Assembly (NCBI GenBank): GCA_024516155.1
Contig: JAJJXM010000007.1
Location: 930,001-994,000, forward strand
Direction: 5' to 3'
DNA from: Pyronema omphalodes
Lineage: Eukaryota > Ascomycota > Pezizomycetes > Pezizales > Pyronemataceae
Length of the DNA stretch: 64,000 bases
Part shown: positions 41,171 to 63,664 of the stretch, piece by piece
Layout of the letters: the number at the start of each line of letters is the position of its first letter
Position numbering within the stretch: the first letter of the stretch is position 1
Made by a program: the position numbers and the translations under genes
Notes under the pieces: generated by a model
Databases searched by the model: none
Seen by the model: only the letters and a program-made list of their open reading frames with translations
What the model was told of the DNA's origin: nothing

Positions 41171-42422
41171 GAAATCCTGCGCAGAATCTCATTGTCTTAT
41201 ATTTTATTTTGTGCTTCTACATACGTTGCAAATATATCGTAAAAATCCATGATAAGGTGCTCGCTTGAAATATTGTAACCATCCATAACGGCAATAGAAC
41301 CACTGGCAAAAGGCTCGGTAAGCCGAGCAATCATCACAGAATACATGCATTGGAGAATTTTGCATCCAGATGGATTAGGTTGTTGTTTTATTTCTTGGCG
41401 GCTCTAAGTTAAGGTAAGCCGAGAAATCATCATGGAATACATTCATTGGAGAATTTTGCATCCAGATGGATTAGGTTGTTGTTTTAGTTCTTGGCGACTC
41501 AAAGTTAAGGTAACCTCACAGGCTAGTGATGTGAGCATTGGTTGTTGGCCGAAATTTAGCGACGCCACGAGATGCTCAAAGCTTTTGTTACCTAATTAAT
41601 TAACGTTGTTTGCTACGCGCATAAGCGCGATAATGGAATGTGACAAGATTTTCAGACCGGTTGATAGGTTGAATAACAACGGACCCAGCCGATCTTTGAC
41701 ACGTTTATGGAAGCACAGTGGTAGCCACCGAACAATGGTGGTGTCACTTATCGCGCTGCAGTCGCCAAGGAAAACGAAGAAATCTTCCACTTGTCACTAC
41801 AAGTTCAAAAAATGGTCGTTAATGATAAAACATGTAGTTGAAATATTAAAGCGCTTTTATGAACTTTTCTTAGCTCATATACGATGATAGCTACCTCACC
41901 TTTTTCTTCGTTATAATTTGTATCTATTATGAACGCTGGCCCGTAGTTTAGATCATTTAGAATTCCTTGAAATTGAGAGGATAAAACGTGTCTTTACTAA
42001 ATGATTTAGTTGAGCTGTGTGCATTCCCAAGGATTGTTCTTTGACGTTTCAAAATACTTCACGAAATACACCACGTACTATTCCTTGGCGCAAGGAGACT
42101 ATCTTCAGGGAAAGACAGATAAGAATATTCATAACCCAATCAATCAGAAGACCCTATTATGGTAAATGCAAAGTTTTTTTGTCCCTCCATGTACAGATGC
42201 GTTGCCGTAGCATGAGAACTCAGGCCAGAATCTGGTCCTTACGTTTTGTACGTATCTTCTCCTACCCATACATTTGTCTCTGTCAAGAGTCTATCTTGGA
42301 ACGCTACATAATACTGTTTCTTTCGTCTTCCTGGACATAATACACATGGATGGGATACTATAGTACGCTCCGTATAAAATGTGCAACAGTGCAATTATTT
42401 ACATCACTTGTGGTGCGCCCTG
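41171..42422. other. Intergenic
   Basis: No gene supported. It contains a 96-bp tandem duplication at its left and ends at the terminal repeat of the mobile element, whose left target-site copy CCTG is at 42419-42422. Confidence 0.55.
41317..41508. repeat. 96-bp tandem duplication
   Basis: Two adjacent copies, 41317-41412 and 41413-41508, both starting GGTAAGCCGAG and sharing GGAGAATTTTGCATCCAGAT. They differ at only a handful of positions. Non-coding. Confidence 0.9.
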
Positions 42423-42464
42423 CCCTATGGTACAAGAAAACGAGTGAGAGTGGTTTAGTTCAAA

Positions 42465-43010
42465 CACCTTCGTGGTTTAGCTAAACACCGAAAGTGTTTA
42501 GTTAAACACCCTAAACACCAAAGTTGTTTAGTCTGATTTAAGGTGTTTAGCTAAACCACCCATCGTTGTTTCAAAGTGTTTAGTTAAACACCCCTAAACA
42601 CCGAAGTTGTTTAGTGTGATTTAAGGTGTTTAGCTAAACCACCTAGCGTTGTTTAGTTAAACAACTACCTTGATTTTTTTTTTTTGTGGGGTTTATTTAA
42701 ACACCCTAGGGGTGTTTAAATAAACACCTTCTTTTCCGCTTATTCTTCGGTATTTATTTAAACATCCTAGGGGTGTTTAGATAAACACCCTAGAGGTGTT
42801 TAAGGATGTTTAAATAAACACCTCTTTTTTCGCTTATTCTTTGGTGTTTATTTAAACACCCTAGGGGTGTTTAAGGATGTTTAAATAAACACCTTCTTTT
42901 TTACATATTCTTTGGGGTTTATTTGAACACCCTAGGGGCGTTTAAATAAACACCTTCTTCTTCGCCTATTCTTCGGGGTTTATTTGAACTATCCTCTGAC
43001 GTTTAAATAA
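42465..43010. repeat. Palindromic GGTGTTTA array (left)
   Basis: Repeated palindromic modules such as AAACACCCTAGGGGTGTTT and TTTAAATAAACACC, spaced by CTTCTTTTCCGCTTATTC-like linkers. Two sub-blocks exist: GTGTTTAGTTAAACACC modules repeating at about 78-80 bp, then CCTAGGGG-centred modules repeating at about 75-90 bp. The motif occurs in both orientations. Confidence 0.85.
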
Positions 43011-43689
43011 ACATCTACAGTCCACTTCCTAGGGATGGCGTTTCCATGGTTCATATAAATCACCCTGCAGTGTTCTACTGAACATTCAGTTTTAACCTGT
43101 AGAGCTGTGTTCTGCTTATGTTTGTTGATGGAAGTGGATATGGCCTTAGTGCGCATCCCTTCCTTATGTTCTGTTCGTTCTGCCGTTGTTGTTCCTCGTT
43201 CTTCATCCATTTCATTCACTTGTTTCTCCACCTCCATCTTTCCCTCTTGTTTGACTGTAAGTTTTTCCTCATGTCAAATGTTTGTCCCTCAACAGAATTT
43301 GCTAGTTCATACACCATACACCACCGGAGGGAAAAAAGAGAGAGAGAGGGGGGGAATTGGGATATGAACTTCTAGATACTCGCTGAGTCAAGTACTGCAA
43401 ACCAACCCCACAAATATCCACAATGCTAACCAGACAAACAGGATGCTCAGAAAACCTAAGTCTATTTATTGAAGCGATCCATGATTCCAGCATATGTAAG
43501 GGTCAATTAAAAAAGGCACAAAGCGAATGGTACTATACAGAGAGCAGGAGCAGGAGTAGGAGGGGTGAGGAGGGAGGTGGGAGGTTCCTGTATGTATAGA
43601 TAGAGGACCTGGCAATAGCTAGAGACATGTTATATAATGAGCGAGTGGTTTAGTAATTAATTTAAAACATTTAAAAAATATCTGAGGTG

Positions 43690-44110
43690 CTTGATCAAAC
43701 CACTATTGTGCAAGGTGTTTAAATCGGTGTTTAAAGGTGTCTAGTAGGTGTTTAGATCGGTGTTTAAAGGTGTTTAAAGGTGTTTAAATCGGTGTTTAAA
43801 TCGTTGTTTAAAGGTGTTTAGTAGGTGTTTAAAGAGGTGTTTAAAGGTGTTTAAAGGTGTTTAAATCGGTGTTTAAATCGTTGTTTAAAGGTGTTTAGTA
43901 GGTGTTTAAAGGTGTTTAGTAGGTGTTTAAAGAGGTGTTTAGTAGGTGTTTAAAGGTGTTTAGTAGGTGTTTAAAGAGGTGTTTAGTAGGTGTTTAAAGA
44001 GGTGTTTAGTAGGTGTTTAAAGGTGTTTAGTAGGTGTTTAAAGAGGTGTTTAGTAGGTGTTTAAAGGTGTTTAGTAGGTGTTTAAAGAGGTGTTTAGTAA
44101 ATGAATTTTG
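43690..44110. repeat. Direct GGTGTTTA array (right)
   Basis: About 35 direct copies of GGTGTTTA followed by AA, AATC, AAGA or GTA, making units such as AGGTGTTTAAAGAGGTGTTTAGT. All copies keep one orientation, in contrast to the left array. Confidence 0.9.
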
Positions 44111-44297
44111 CGGGTGTTTGAATTAAACACCTTTTGTGGTTTAAAGTGTGGTTTGATTAAACACCTTTTTTTTGTACCACAGGGCCTGATAATCATCTCC
44201 CCCTGTAGTATTTAGTGCGTTAATATGCAGACTTATTTACTGGAGCATCGTAAATACAATCAAAATTTGCTAAGATGGATTCATTGGGCTCCTCATA

Positions 44298-53408: not shown

Positions 53409-53415
53409 TATATAA
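53409..53415 (+). promoter_or_regulatory. TATA-like box of the Cys-rich protein gene
   Basis: TATATAA about 300 bp before the start codon, in sparse surroundings. It would imply a leader of about 270 nt rich in pyrimidines. Suited to a strongly expressed gene, as the codon bias also suggests. Confidence 0.45.
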
Positions 53416-53713
53416 GATGTGATCTTTGACCGTAATTTGATCCAGCACCAAACACCGCATTCACAGCAGTTCGATTAAAGCATTCGCATAATCAGCAATC
53501 TTCAATTTCAATAATATCTCCCCCGATAACTAAATCTGTACGATTCCGCTTCCAATACATCCATCAGTTCATTCAGCATTTCCTTCAATCCATCCATCAT
53601 TTCCTTCGGGATTGATTCCTTCACATTTCCTTCAATACAACACTCCATTCATCTATCCTTCTGTGCGATTTTCGGAAACAGATTGGCTAACAATTTCACA
53701 GTAATCCATCAAA

Positions 53714-55114
53714 ATGCAAATGCAGATCTGCCACTCCCTCATCATGGCCGTCGTTGCCCTCGGCGGACTTTCTCAGGTTCGGGCCGCTCCCATGCCCGCT
53801 CCTGGAGTCCCTTGCCCCTGCCCGGCTCCTTGCGACCCCTGCTTCGATGCAGTCGCCCCTCTCGCCCGCTGTGGATGTGTTACTCCTTGCAACTGTGGAG
53901 CCCGTCCCGCCGCTGTCAACATTGTTAACGGAGGATGTGGATGCCGTGGACCTTGCGGATGCGGACCCGCTCCCGCCGCTGTCAACATCGCCAACCTTGG
54001 ACGCAACTGCTGCTGCCCTGGACCTTGCAACTGCGGACCCGCCGAGAAGGCTCTTGGCCTCGCTGCTGAGGTCTTGAACCCTTGCAACCCTTGTGGATGC
54101 CCTGCTCCCTGCGCTTGCCCCGCTCCCTGCGCTCCTGTTCCCTGCGCCCCCGCTCCCTGCGGTCCCATCGCCGTCAACGACACCCCCAACATCCACCAGG
54201 AGGTGAACCTCCCCTGTGACGTCCCCTGCGGATGCCCCACCCCTTGCAACGCTGGCGCTGCATTGGCTGTTAACCAGATCAACAACTGCGGTAACTGTGG
54301 CTGCCCCGCTCCTTGCGGATGCCCCGCTCCCTGCCCCGCTCCTTGCGACCCCTGCAACAAAGCCACCGTCGCCTGCTCTTCCGCCTCCGCCACCGCCGTC
54401 GCCTCCAACCCTAACTGCGCCTGTCCCGACCCTTGCGCCTGCCCCCCCTGTGGCTGCCCCGCTCCTTGTGACTGCGCCGTAGTCCAGCCCACCGACTGCT
54501 CTCCTTGTATTGAGGTCCCCATCGCCGCTCCCTGTGCCCCCTGCAACCCCCCCGTTGAGGCCTGCGCCGAGGCCGAGGCCACCATCACCAAGCGCTCCAA
54601 CTGCTTCTCCATCAACGCTCCCGACTGCGGATGCCGTACCCCCTGCGGATGTGGCCCCAACTTCCTCGGAGCCGACATCTCCGGATTCGCTCGCAACATC
54701 GCCAACGACGCTGCTGCCAACAACATTGCCGCTCCCGGTCCCTTCCCCTGTGACGCCCCCTGCAACCCCTGCCCCCCTTGCAACCCCTGCCCCCCTTGCA
54801 ACCCCTGCCCTCCCTGTGGTCCTATCGTCGCTCCCGTTCCTCAGTTCCAGGCTCCTTGCGACACCACCGTTGTAGAGCCCGCTATCAACCGTCTTAACCC
54901 CACTTTGGTCTCTGAGCACACCGACATCCAGCCTGTCAACATTGTTCAGCCTTTCCACGATGTTACCCAGCCCATTGTTGATGAGACTATCCAGCCCATC
55001 CACAGCGCCACTGTCAACGACCCTATTGTCCAGCAGCAGGTTGCTCCTTGCAAGGAGTGTGGTTGCAACCCTTGCGCTTGCTGCGGACCTTTCTCTCGTG
55101 GAGTTGTTGTTTAA
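53714..55114 (+). CDS. Cys/Pro-rich secreted repetitive protein
   Basis: A single exon of 466 residues. A signal peptide ends near residue 24 (GLSQVRA before APMPAPG). I count 71 Cys in the mature part, about one residue in six, mostly as CPAPC, CGC, CxPC and CNPCPPC units. Two weak longer repeats read PAAVNIVNGGCGCRGPCGCGP and a near copy. A Kex2-like Lys-Arg follows ATIT near the middle. The C-terminal quarter has a Cys-free Val/Gln/Pro stretch before a last Cys cluster. Codons are strongly biased to C-ending forms, unlike the neighbours, which suggests very high expression. No known family recognised; a disulphide-bonded wall, adhesive or metal-binding role is conjecture. Confidence 0.8.
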   Translation: MQMQICHSLIMAVVALGGLSQVRAAPMPAPGVPCPCPAPCDPCFDAVAPLARCGCVTPCNCGARPAAVNIVNGGCGCRGPCGCGPAPAAVNIANLGRNCCCPGPCNCGPAEKALGLAAEVLNPCNPCGCPAPCACPAPCAPVPCAPAPCGPIAVNDTPNIHQEVNLPCDVPCGCPTPCNAGAALAVNQINNCGNCGCPAPCGCPAPCPAPCDPCNKATVACSSASATAVASNPNCACPDPCACPPCGCPAPCDCAVVQPTDCSPCIEVPIAAPCAPCNPPVEACAEAEATITKRSNCFSINAPDCGCRTPCGCGPNFLGADISGFARNIANDAAANNIAAPGPFPCDAPCNPCPPCNPCPPCNPCPPCGPIVAPVPQFQAPCDTTVVEPAINRLNPTLVSEHTDIQPVNIVQPFHDVTQPIVDETIQPIHSATVNDPIVQQQVAPCKECGCNPCACCGPFSRGVVV

Positions 55115-55776: not shown

Positions 55777-57894
55777 TCACCGACCTGGTTCATCCTCACA
55801 ACACTCACAGCGAGTCGGTATGCAGCATAGCCACTTACATATCCCATGAAGCACCCTTGTCCCAAAGCGTACACTTTTTTCACGCCTCACATTCCTCGCT
55901 TCCTCACCGAGGGGTGCGGCCGGCGCCACCTCCGGATCCTCTCCATACCCGGGACTATCCAAACTCATTGGCAGTGATTCATAATATGGTGCTTTTCGAT
56001 TAGCCCAACTATGCTTAGGATCAATGCTTGTCGTTGGATTCGAGGCGGGTAAGGTTGTTTCAGACGTCTCTTGCGGACCAGGCGGAGAGCCCATGTTGCT
56101 TTCTACAGGTTCTTGTGAGGGCAGGTAATCGGTGGCCGATGGTGGGTCCATTTCAGAGATGGATCCAGAGGACTGGGTACTTGTTGCTGAGTCTTGAGAC
56201 GCAGAGAGACTGGCAAGTTCGATATCATTTTCGTCGCGTAGTGGAAGAGAATGTGTCTCGATATTCTCACTACCAGGGGGTTGAAGATACAACCGCCTCT
56301 CGTTATGGGGGAATCCTTCCTCTGGAACATAGATTGTCGCCCCACTACTAGAACTTAACCGAGACTGGCTCTCTGCCGTATCAGGCTGTGGAGCAGGCTG
56401 TGGACCTAGTGGGTTTGTTTCAGAGATGGGTTCAGAGGACTGGATAACTGTTGCTGAGTCTTGAGACGCAGAGAGACTGGCAAGTTCGATATCATTTTCG
56501 TCGCCTAGTGGAAGAGAATGCGTTTCGATATTTTCACTACCAGGGGGTTGAAGATATAGCCGCCCCTCGTTGTTGGGGAATCCTTCTTCTGGAACATAAA
56601 TTGTCGCCCCGCTGCTAGAACTTGACCGTGACTGACTCCCTGTTGTATGAGGCTGTGGAATATGCGTTTGATTATCGTCCTCCAAGACCGCAATGGTGGT
56701 ATCGCTACTAGGACTTGTCACAGACCGATTCTCTGCCGTATCAGGCTGCGGAGCAGGCTGTAGAGCCGGTGAGTCCGTTTCAGATATGGGTCCAGAGCAC
56801 AGGATATCCGTTGCTAAGTCTTGAGACGCAGACAGATTGGCAAGTTCGATATCATTTTCGTCGCCTAGTGGAAGAGAATGCGTTTCGATATTTTCACTAC
56901 CAGGGGGTTGAAGATATAGCCGCCCCTCGTTGTTGGGGAATCCTTCTTCTGGAACAAAGATTGTCGCCCCGCTGCTAGAACTTGACCGTGACTGACTCCC
57001 TGTTGTATGAGGCTGTGGAATATGCGTTTGATTATCGTCCTCGAAGACCGCAATGGTGGTATCGCTACTAGGACTTGTCACAGACCGACTCTCTGCCGTA
57101 TCAGACTGCGGAGCAGGCTGTGGACCTGGTGGGTTCGTTTCAGAGATGGATTCAGAGGACCGTGTACCAGTTGCTGAGTCATTATCGTCCTCTAAGTCCT
57201 GGGGGGTGGTATCGCTACTAGGACTTGCCGCGGACTGACTCTCTGCCGTATCAGGCTGTGGAGCAGGTTGTGGGCCAGGAGGTGGGGTCGGGGGAGGAGA
57301 AACAGGTGGACGCGGCCACGGTGCTTCGATATCCGGGTTAGATGACCCATCCAGAGACGATAAAGCATTGTTGATCGGTACGTCATCCTCCGGTGTAGGA
57401 TTCACAGTATCTGACTGTACAGAACCGTTCGCAGCCTCACTTTGTTCTGATGCAGCTTTATTATCCTCGGCCAACGAAACATTGGTATCTGCGTATGACA
57501 GGTTGCTTTCGGTATAGGTATTGCTATTTTGGAGGTATTCTGTTGCTATAGCCTCGCCATCTACGAAAACGTTTGTGAGTGATTCTGGCCCAATATTGCC
57601 AAGCCATCGCTGAACCTGTCTCTGTACGTCGGTTGTCAAAGGGAAGCTGGGCTGGGAATCTTCGTTGTCATTGACAGTTACTGTAGCCGAGGGACAAGAA
57701 CGTCCGTCATCTTGAACACTCTCGGTGTCGAAGTATGTAGTTTCTGCAGATGATGCGCAATCCGTATCTTCATGGTCGTGGAGAACATTCGTTACCTCCG
57801 ATTCATCTGTTTCGTCGTTGACAGATAGTGGCTGGTAAGATGGGTGTCGCATGGTAACGGGGGTTTCCGTAGGCTGTGAACTACTTGGACACAT
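55777..57894 (-). CDS. Repetitive acidic protein with C-terminal Cys cluster
   Basis: A single-exon frame of 705 residues from ATG 57894; an ATG 14 codons later is an alternative. It is Ser/Glu/Asp/Pro-rich and likely disordered. The middle has a 120-residue unit (360 bp) present twice almost identically and a third time shortened by 31 residues, with blocks GATIYVPEEGFPNNEGRLYL, QPPGSENIETHSLPL and NDIELASLSASQD. PQPAPQPDTAES linkers recur. The C-terminus turns basic (RREKSVRFGTRVLHG) and ends in CKWLCCIPTRCECCEDE, a Cys/Trp cluster that could be lipid-modified or bind metal. No domain recognised. Confidence 0.68.
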   Translation of the reverse strand: MCPSSSQPTETPVTMRHPSYQPLSVNDETDESEVTNVLHDHEDTDCASSAETTYFDTESVQDDGRSCPSATVTVNDNEDSQPSFPLTTDVQRQVQRWLGNIGPESLTNVFVDGEAIATEYLQNSNTYTESNLSYADTNVSLAEDNKAASEQSEAANGSVQSDTVNPTPEDDVPINNALSSLDGSSNPDIEAPWPRPPVSPPPTPPPGPQPAPQPDTAESQSAASPSSDTTPQDLEDDNDSATGTRSSESISETNPPGPQPAPQSDTAESRSVTSPSSDTTIAVFEDDNQTHIPQPHTTGSQSRSSSSSGATIFVPEEGFPNNEGRLYLQPPGSENIETHSLPLGDENDIELANLSASQDLATDILCSGPISETDSPALQPAPQPDTAENRSVTSPSSDTTIAVLEDDNQTHIPQPHTTGSQSRSSSSSGATIYVPEEGFPNNEGRLYLQPPGSENIETHSLPLGDENDIELASLSASQDSATVIQSSEPISETNPLGPQPAPQPDTAESQSRLSSSSGATIYVPEEGFPHNERRLYLQPPGSENIETHSLPLRDENDIELASLSASQDSATSTQSSGSISEMDPPSATDYLPSQEPVESNMGSPPGPQETSETTLPASNPTTSIDPKHSWANRKAPYYESLPMSLDSPGYGEDPEVAPAAPLGEEARNVRREKSVRFGTRVLHGICKWLCCIPTRCECCEDEPGR
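56190..57150. repeat. Intragenic tandem repeat, 360-bp unit
   Basis: Anchors of the unit fall at 56269, 56536 and 56896, so spacing is 267 and 360 bp, both multiples of three. The two rightmost copies differ by only a few bases over 200 bp, a sign of recent duplication or ongoing homogenisation. Confidence 0.88.
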
Positions 57895-58910
57895 ATTTTC
57901 AAGCCAGAATGATATCAAAAAATGTTAATCTGTGACAAAACCAAAAATATGTGTTGTATTAAAGATAACAGAATAGTTGAGGTTGGAAGAGCATTGGTAT
58001 TGTTGAGAGTATTGAAGATTGGATAGTGTAGGAGGTTGAGGAATGTGAGATGTAACCATTCTTTGTTCCAAGGATATTGCACGTGGAAACAAGTGGAGAT
58101 GGATATATATGTCTCAGCTGAGGTTTTGAGTTGTAGGCGTGCATCATTCATCGTATATTAAGAAGTAGGAATAGCCCAAAACCGAAGATCCTGACGAACG
58201 AGTACTTTTTGATAGTATAGTGTATTACCGCAAAGGGTACGCAAATCAAACGCAGAAATGACTTCAATGACTTCAATGACTTACAAAGCTAAATTATATC
58301 ATCCTACCTGATCCTTCCTATTAGATATTGAAAGACGATTTTCCACTTCCATCATCGGTATCTAGAAATTCGGTTGGAACGGTGATACTTTGTAACACTT
58401 GAGCTTCAGCGTATCTTAATATATACTAAAGATGCCCCGTAGGACAATCTGCTCAGTGGTTTGCATACGTACGATCCAACATCTAATGCTTGTCCTCAAA
58501 AGTAGTTGTCAGGATGATATTGTAAGGGAAAAACGGAGTCTACTAAAGGGCTCGCAAAGCTCGGGAAATTATGGAGCGGCTATATCTTCACATTTACTCG
58601 AAAGCACACATAGTATGTAGAACATTGAGTAGAAGCACTATCGGGGTTGCATAATTCAGGCGTGTGGCTGTTGATCGATAAGATGAAGCATGTTAAAGAA
58701 AAGTAGGGAATGCATTCATGGAACCATGAAGAAGCAAATAGAATTCCATAACAGTAATTATGATTTAAAACCATTTTATATAGGGAAGTTCGCATAGAAC
58801 GTTTTCTGGTACTAGCATAAAGTGTCTTGCACAAAGACAATCACCACAACCAATTAATTACTTCGACATCGCATCATGGCGCTATACAGTTCGGTCTTAC
58901 ACTTAAACAT
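57895..58910. other. Intergenic
   Basis: About 1 kb with no supported gene; includes the promoter of the repeat-protein gene. Confidence 0.55.
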
Positions 58911-62556: not shown

Positions 62557-63664
62557 ATGTTACCGCTCCTATTTCTTCTTCCCTTCCTTGCACGGGTTGC
62601 ATTATGTCAAATTCCAACGGAATTTTCCTCAACGTTCGACAAGACCTCCGGAATCCAACTCGTTGTTTCCGTCGGCGGCACGGAGATTGAAAACGGTCAA
62701 CTAGTTCCATTATCGGAAACTAAAAAACTGCCAACCTTCGCATTAGGACCATCCTCACCCGTCAATACCAGTAGCAAATACATCATCGTCGCGGTGGATC
62801 CTGACGCGCCTTCCCGTTCTAATCCTATCCTCGCGCAGTTCTTACATTATATGAACACGGATTTTTCTCCGGTGTCTGCAACAAACAGAAATATCACAAG
62901 TAGTAATGACAGACCGACGGTGAAATATATTGCCCCTAGCCCGCCGATTGGAACAGGGGCACATAGATATGTTTGGTTACTTTATCAACAACCAGATGGG
63001 TTTCAGGCAAAGAATATTCCAACGGCGGATAGAGTTGGTTTTAATGTCACAAAGTGGGCGGAGGAGAATGGACTAAAGCCTGCGATATCAGGGAGTTACT
63101 GGGTATCTGAATTTGGTGGTGAGTTTTGAATGTTTTGTTTTGTTTTTTCCAAAAAAAAAAAAAAAAAAATCAAAACCGAAAAAAAAACTTCATAATCATC
63201 AATTCCATCTAACCCGGATGCTAATTTTTTCTGTAGACGGGAAACTCGGAGTCGGTGATTTGACCGAGGTGCCAATTGTTTCCAACCCGAGCGGTGGTCG
63301 GGATAGTGGAAGTGGTACACCAACACTGCTACCGAGATCGAGTAGCACACGATACGGTAACAGCACTGCCACTTTAATCAGGTCGGGGAACTATACACGG
63401 ACGGTGACACGAAGCCGGGGAGCAGTAACTACCGCGACACCTTTAATTACCGATGCTCCTATAGCATCCGAGGATACGGGTCCTACGATGACTATGACAG
63501 AGATCGTAACGCTTCCATTTGAGTCTGGGACTAGCGCGTCAAATTCAATAAGAAATGGAACGGCAGTATCGAGAGCACCTGGATCGGATGCTGTAGGAAG
63601 GTTTGAGGGGAGGGCTTGGTGGTTGTTGATGGCAGTTTTGGGGGCACATTTCGTGGTTCACTAG
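62557..63664 (+). CDS. Secreted PEBP family protein, probably GPI-anchored
   Basis: Two exons: 62557..63118 and 63237..63664, giving 329 residues. A signal peptide (MLPLLFLLPFLARVALC) is followed by a phosphatidylethanolamine-binding fold: VAVDPDAPSRSNP (Asp81-Pro-Asp83), ILAQFLHYMN and GAHRYVWLLYQQP (136-146), which line the anion pocket of the family (Tfs1, Raf kinase inhibitor). After about residue 190 comes a Ser/Thr/Gly-rich linker of 120 residues and a hydrophobic end (AWWLLMAVLGAHFVV), the pattern of GPI attachment. The 118-bp intron has a long A run and a CTAAT branch site. Function of the extracellular forms is unknown. Confidence 0.87.

What the first reader, a model, noticed from the sequence alone, without database searches (positions are those of the whole stretch)
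53714..55114. Extremely Cys/Pro-rich, codon-biased secreted protein
71 Cys in about 442 mature residues in CPAPC/CGC/CNPCPPC units, a clear signal peptide, a TATA-like box, and C-ending codons unlike the neighbours. It looks like an abundant structural surface or adhesive protein without a known family.
Basis: partly seen in the sequence, partly recalled or inferred. Interest (0 to 1): 0.8.

Follow-up and report, generated by a model that had tools for sequence, protein, structure and literature searches.

The report
Cysteine-proline-rich secreted cup-fungus protein
A cup fungus probably close to Pyronema carries an intact, codon-optimised gene for a secreted protein that is about one-sixth cysteine; it matched no family searched but has a relative in the same genome, and it is most likely a disulfide-linked building material of the fungal surface or matrix.

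Summary
Window 53714-55114 (+) is an intact 466-codon frame with 71 Cys and 84 Pro in the 442 residues after the presumed signal peptide. CPxPC occurs 10 times against 0.4 in shuffles; CC is avoided. Codon usage is like EF-1alpha and unlike 11 neighbouring frames. No hit in Pfam, NCBIfam, PDB sequences or the large protein set. It is not alone: gene C152 (1094 aa) of the same genome shares a C-terminal module (52% over 63 aa, 72.8 bits; maximum 25 in 200 shuffles), a co-linear Kex2-like site and the signal-peptide start. C152 links on to C168 and to C212, which looks like a Kex2-processed repeat protein. Best reading: an abundant extracellular structural protein, cut once by Kex2 and cross-linked by disulfides. 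Frame and relationship are shown; secretion is read from sequence; abundance rests on codons; structural role, cut and cross-links are inferred. Stage and location are unknown. Tested features set it apart from minicollagens, hydrophobins and KEPs.

The parts
53409..53416 (+). TATATAAG, possible TATA box, 305 bases before the ATG
   Evidence: weak, no TATAWA within 600 bases upstream of C152, C168 or C212
53686..53701 (+). GCTAAC branch-like motif followed by CACAG: possible 3' end of an intron in the 5' leader; a CTAAY motif lies 16-39 bases before the ATG in all 4 genes compared
   Evidence: inferred, no transcript seen
53714..55114 (+). coding sequence of the Cys/Pro-rich protein, 466 aa, single open frame
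53714..53785 (+). presumed signal peptide, residues 1-24 (start MQMxIxHS resembles C152 and C168, not C212)
   Evidence: by eye; (17 aa, 47%, E 0.002 and 7e-4, weak on their own)
53786..54595 (+). N-terminal Cys/Pro part, residues 25-294, 51 Cys, all 10 CPxPC units
54590..54595 (+). Kex2-like dibasic site, residues K293-R294 in ITKR|SNCFSI, the only KR of the protein
   Evidence: same context ICKRSNTFSI in C152; cutting inferred
54596..55111 (+). C-terminal part, residues 295-466, 20 Cys, with three CNPCPPC units
54893..55042 (+). conserved module, residues 394-443, shared with C152:593643-593822

Best explanation
The gene encodes an abundant secreted structural protein of the fungal wall or extracellular matrix. 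Steps: (1) a signal peptide sends it into the ER (read from the sequence by eye, cleavage inferred); (2) in the oxidising ER and outside, its Cys residues, set among prolines as CxC, CPxPC and CNPC units, form disulfides; the chain looks like short proline-spaced segments rather than a known domain, and the odd number of Cys in the N-terminal part (51) leaves at least one for a bond outside that part (inferred); (3) a single Kex2-like cut at KR|SNCFSI separates the Cys/Pro part from a C-terminal part that carries the module conserved with C152 (site shown, cutting inferred); (4) the parts are built into an insoluble cross-linked layer (inferred). Codon usage says that the gene is tuned for heavy translation at some stage.
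For: Intact frame, 71 Cys of 442. Ordered Cys/Pro units: 10 CPxPC against a shuffle mean of 0.4, CC avoided; Pro before 38 of 71 Cys. Codon adaptation to EF-1alpha+GAPDH 0.733 (0.728 without Cys and Pro codons) against 0.215-0.317 in 11 neighbouring frames and 0.169 antisense. Module with 52% identity to C152, found in both directions; dN 0.40 and dS 3.1 by NG86 over 50 codons, dS saturated. Co-linear Kex2-like site and similar signal start. A kexin P-domain is in the genome. C152, C168 and C212 also have signal-like starts by eye and repetitive low-complexity Cys-containing blocks. No known domain found in it or in C152.
Against: No transcript, protein or location data. The neighbours in the codon comparison are mechanical frames, some probably with introns; the reference is two gene pieces, and one of them (GAPDH) scores only 0.556 with 29% C at third positions, inside the neighbours' range. 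CxxC and CxxxC are no commoner than in shuffles. The whole-C152 genome search did not list this gene at E<=10, although the module searches did. No orthologue in the protein set, although at least one P. domesticum protein is there: rapid change, loss or missing annotation. Orphan genes of P. confluens have lower median expression than conserved ones (PMC3778014). No transmembrane or GPI test and no structure prediction were run.
Confidence: 0.55

Rival explanations
1. Kex2 precursor: the N-terminal Cys/Pro part is a spacer or pro-part, and the C-terminal part released after KR|SNCFSI is the active product (signal, defence or surface-active polypeptide).
For: One KR site in the same context as in C152; the C-terminal part holds the conserved module; C212, linked through C152, is a repeat precursor with 18 KR sites, several followed by EA.
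Against: Only one site, two fragments, no repeated product; the product would be 172 aa, long for a released peptide (recalled).
Confidence: 0.18
2. Extracellular metal binder: the many thiols bind copper, zinc or cadmium like a large metallothionein.
For: 20 CxC and 16 CxxC pairs; no Tyr or Trp and one Met after the signal peptide.
Against: The signal-like start would take the thiols to an oxidising place; Pro before 38 of 71 Cys and only 4 Lys are unlike metallothioneins (their traits recalled); no Pfam match.
Confidence: 0.12
3. Secreted antimicrobial or interaction protein, like the small secreted families expanded in P. confluens (CBM_14, Defensin_2; PMC3778014, passages).
For: Signal-like start, Cys-rich, no match outside the genome.
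Against: 466 aa with Cys/Pro units and no defensin or chitin-binding match in Pfam.
Confidence: 0.08
4. Spurious frame in GC-rich sequence.
For: Two antisense frames are open over the same stretch.
Against: Codon adaptation 0.733 against 0.169 antisense; protein-level similarity in both directions with dN below a saturated dS.
Confidence: 0.02

Closest known systems
C152, C168 and C212 proteins of the same genome, and Pyronema domesticum FPQ18DRAFT_334964 (orthologue of C168)
   Same: C152: shared module, IxKRSNxFSI site and signal start. C168: signal start only. C212: only through C152. All have KR sites.
   Different: 5.4-10.4% Cys against 15.5% here; 2 to 18 KR sites against one; by eye they carry Asn/Gln-rich and Gly-Cys blocks that are not prominent here.
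Kex2-processed repeat proteins (KEPs; PMC6339444, abstract and passages seen)
   Same: Signal-like start, a KR site, linked through C152 to C212, which looks like a KEP.
   Different: Two fragments and no repeated product; the published pipeline asks for at least four fragments and a motif in at least three.
Cnidarian minicollagens (PMC4863159, passages seen)
   Same: Secreted, Cys set three residues apart in places, prolines; polymerise by disulfides.
   Different: No CX3CX3CX3CX3CC domain; longest Gly-X-Y run 4 triplets against 12-16.
Hydrophobins (recalled) and the Kex2-released repellent Rep1 (PMC9769878, passages seen)
   Same: Fungal surface proteins, Cys-paired or Kex2-released.
   Different: No eight-Cys hydrophobin spacing and no Pfam match; not a repeat precursor.

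Membership tests
Kex2-processed repeat protein (KEP) | at least four fragments after Kex2 cutting, with a similar motif in at least three | tested here: not met
   one KR, no RR or KK, two fragments; definition from PMC6339444 passages. For C212: 23 fragments at KR/RR, 7 with FNQN; the authors' own pipeline was not run
Kex2 substrate in general | dibasic KR site in the mature protein and a kexin in the genome | tested here: met
   K293-R294, PF01483 P-domain over cut-off at one place; cutting itself not testable here
Minicollagen | CX3CX3CX3CX3CC domain | tested here: not met
   no match; definition from PMC4863159
Minicollagen | 12-16 Gly-X-Y triplets | tested here: not met
   longest run 4 triplets
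Hydrophobin | eight Cys in C-CC-C-C-CC-C spacing (recalled) | tested here: not met
   no match; no Pfam family at E<=10
CFEM | eight-Cys domain, Pfam model | tested here: not met
Metallothionein | short cytosolic metal-binding Cys-rich protein (recalled) | tested here: inconclusive
   signal-like start by eye and no Pfam family speak against it; metal binding not testable
In-genome relatives of C152 | shared C-terminal module and IxKRSNxFSI site | tested here: met

The most novel reading that the evidence does not exclude
A lineage-specific fungal material: a disulfide-hardened Cys/Pro protein, working like minicollagen cross-linking domains but of separate origin, that arose in Pyronema-like cup fungi from relatives of Kex2-processed repeat proteins by keeping a single Kex2 site and expanding CPxPC units. 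Peptide precursors would thus have been turned into a structural layer.
Probability: 0.22. Interest if true: 0.65.

Novelty: new variant of a known kind. Interest (0 to 1): 0.42.

Why it matters
Pyronema serves as a model for fruiting-body formation and grows fast on burnt soil (PMC10455484, passages), and more than 20% of P. confluens orphan genes rise in sexual development (PMC3778014, section 9). A codon-optimised surface protein without a described family could be a main component of fruiting body, spore or wall, could be tested there, and could offer a disulfide-set biomaterial. The link to Kex2-processed repeat proteins would show how a peptide-precursor family can turn into structural proteins.

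Tried and rejected
Profile and sequence searches found no family: Pfam (C152; C168), NCBIfam, whose models are for bacteria and archaea and so say little, PDB sequences (module profile). C212 gave only a sub-threshold Extensin_1 match, 18.7 bits against a cut-off of 105. In the large protein set none of the 7,997 scored candidates passed E<=0.001 for the whole protein and none of 15 passed E<=10 for residues 370-466.

A degenerate DNA pattern for CPxPCxC gave 21 matches in the genome against 4 for the reversed pattern; 3 lie in this gene, 13 are one identical sequence at scattered places, 5 are single. Of those 5, two were opened: C222 overlaps a frame that looks like acetolactate synthase by eye, C155 only short frames; the other three and the 13 were not opened.

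The host could not be named by rDNA: the 5.8S family found nothing. Weak extra matches to the VDTPVVD-type repeats of C212 at C178, C183 and C192 (E 8e-5 to 0.005) were taken as low complexity and not followed.

Papers: 'CPAPC' gave 13 papers, 10 listed, none on such a protein by title; Pyronema + cysteine-rich + cell wall gave two, neither on such a protein by title and start of abstract; a Pezizomycetes/Cys/Pro wall-protein search listed 15 of 48, mostly plant papers; Pyronema + secretome terms listed 8 of 51. Supplements could not be read, so Pyronema gene tables were not seen.

A loose CFEM spacing pattern matched and was rejected because Pfam did not. The YN00 estimate of dN/dS failed with a numerical error; only NG86 is given.

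Full report
What is there. The frame at 53714-55114 is intact and encodes 466 residues. After the presumed signal peptide, 71 of 442 residues are Cys and 84 Pro. CPxPC occurs 10 times (shuffle mean 0.4, maximum 4 in 2000), CC only 3 times (mean 11.3), CxC 20 times (mean 11.1, maximum 21); CxxC and CxxxC are within the shuffles. Pro stands directly before 38 of 71 Cys (mean 13.6, maximum 27) and directly after 15 (mean 13.4). The non-random element is thus cysteine preceded by proline, in CPxPC units, rather than a strict Cys period. Short tandem repeats lie at 54098-54166, 54421-54479 and 54756-54816.

Coding status and expression. With EF-1alpha and GAPDH pieces as reference, codon adaptation is 0.733 (0.728 without Cys and Pro codons). 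Eleven neighbouring mechanical frames, chosen from 23 others, give 0.215-0.317, the long antisense frame 0.169; C152, C168 and C212 give 0.573, 0.710 and 0.618; EF-1alpha 0.883 and GAPDH 0.556, both part of the reference. Third-position C is 59% here, 51% in EF-1alpha, 29% in GAPDH, 18-31% in the neighbours. This argues for heavy translation and for the + frame. Limits: two reference pieces, neighbours not curated. TATATAAG 305 bases upstream is real but not shared by the three related genes. All four genes have a CTAAY motif 16-39 bases before the ATG, which suggests an intron in the leader; no transcript was seen.

Host. The related C168 protein is 92% identical over its whole length to P. 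domesticum FPQ18DRAFT_334964. Pyronema or a near relative is therefore inferred. 5.8S rRNA was not found.

Relatives. A genome search with the C-terminal 94 residues found the gene itself and C152:593643-593822 (E 2.3e-13, 53%). The reverse search with 151 residues of C152 found itself and this gene (E 1.6e-6, 49%); a search with the whole of C152 did not list it. BLASTP gives 72.8 bits over 63 aa (52%), against a maximum of 25.0 in 200 shuffles; the first 17 residues also align with C152 (E 0.002) and C168 (E 7e-4), and in a MAFFT alignment I[TC]KRSNxFSI is co-linear. Over 50 ungapped codons dN is 0.40 and dS 3.1 by NG86 (saturated), with identity by codon position 0.66, 0.70 and 0.42. C152 is related to C168 (60 and 68% in two blocks) and to C212 (again). 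Direct similarity of this gene to C168 is the signal start, and with C212 only matches at chance level were seen; its link to C212 is through C152 alone.

Kex2. This protein has one KR site (K293-R294), C152 eight, C168 two, C212 eighteen. Cut at KR and RR, C212 gives 23 fragments, 7 with an FNQN motif, several starting with EA after KR, as in alpha-factor precursors with a Ste13 site (passage in PMC9769878; the EA motif is recalled). C212 thus looks like a Kex2-processed repeat protein by the published criteria (PMC6339444, passages), while the protein of the finding does not. A kexin P-domain is in the genome.

Mechanism. Shown: frame, composition, module, site, codon usage. Inferred: secretion, cut, disulfides, wall or matrix location. 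The N-terminal part has 51 Cys and the C-terminal 20, so at least one thiol of the former is free or bonded elsewhere. In P. confluens more than 20% of orphan genes are upregulated in sexual development against less than 5% in other groups, but orphan genes have lower median expression overall (PMC3778014, section 9). Whether this gene is among them was not tested, and the second half of that result speaks against assuming abundance from orphan status.

Comparison. Features of minicollagens, hydrophobins, CFEM and KEPs were tested and not met; metallothionein is inconclusive but unlikely. It would work most like disulfide-polymerised Cys/Pro domains, but is not shown to be a member of any of these.

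Verdict. A real, unusual gene with relatives in its own genome, filed as a new variant of a known kind: a Cys/Pro-rich extracellular structural protein.

Noticed in passing
G000:C212:198284-202066 (L013:3785-7567): 1261-aa frame with 18 KR sites, 7 of 23 fragments with FNQN, EA after several KR, and Cys-Gly blocks: looks like an undescribed Kex2-processed repeat protein.
   Followed up: partly
G000:C152:591417-594698 (L004:3418-6699): 1094-aa protein with a signal-like start, Asn/Gln-rich blocks, AIPISNLAADS-type repeats and eight KR sites; no Pfam match.
   Followed up: partly
window 42490-44100: Dense array of palindromic TTTAAACACC / GGTGTTTAAA repeats (74 inverted pairs in 42400-44200; tandem arrays).
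   Followed up: no
window 55777-57918 (-): 713-aa frame with 267- and 360-bp tandem repeats over 56151-57157 and a Cys-containing C-terminal end; only a sub-threshold Pfam match.
   Followed up: no
window 62557-63129 (+): Phosphatidylethanolamine-binding protein (PF01161, E 5e-15) with a signal-like start by eye.
   Followed up: no
G000:C162:369515 and 392450: Two EF-1alpha-like matches about 23 kb apart with equal scores, perhaps a recent duplication or an assembly repeat.
   Followed up: no
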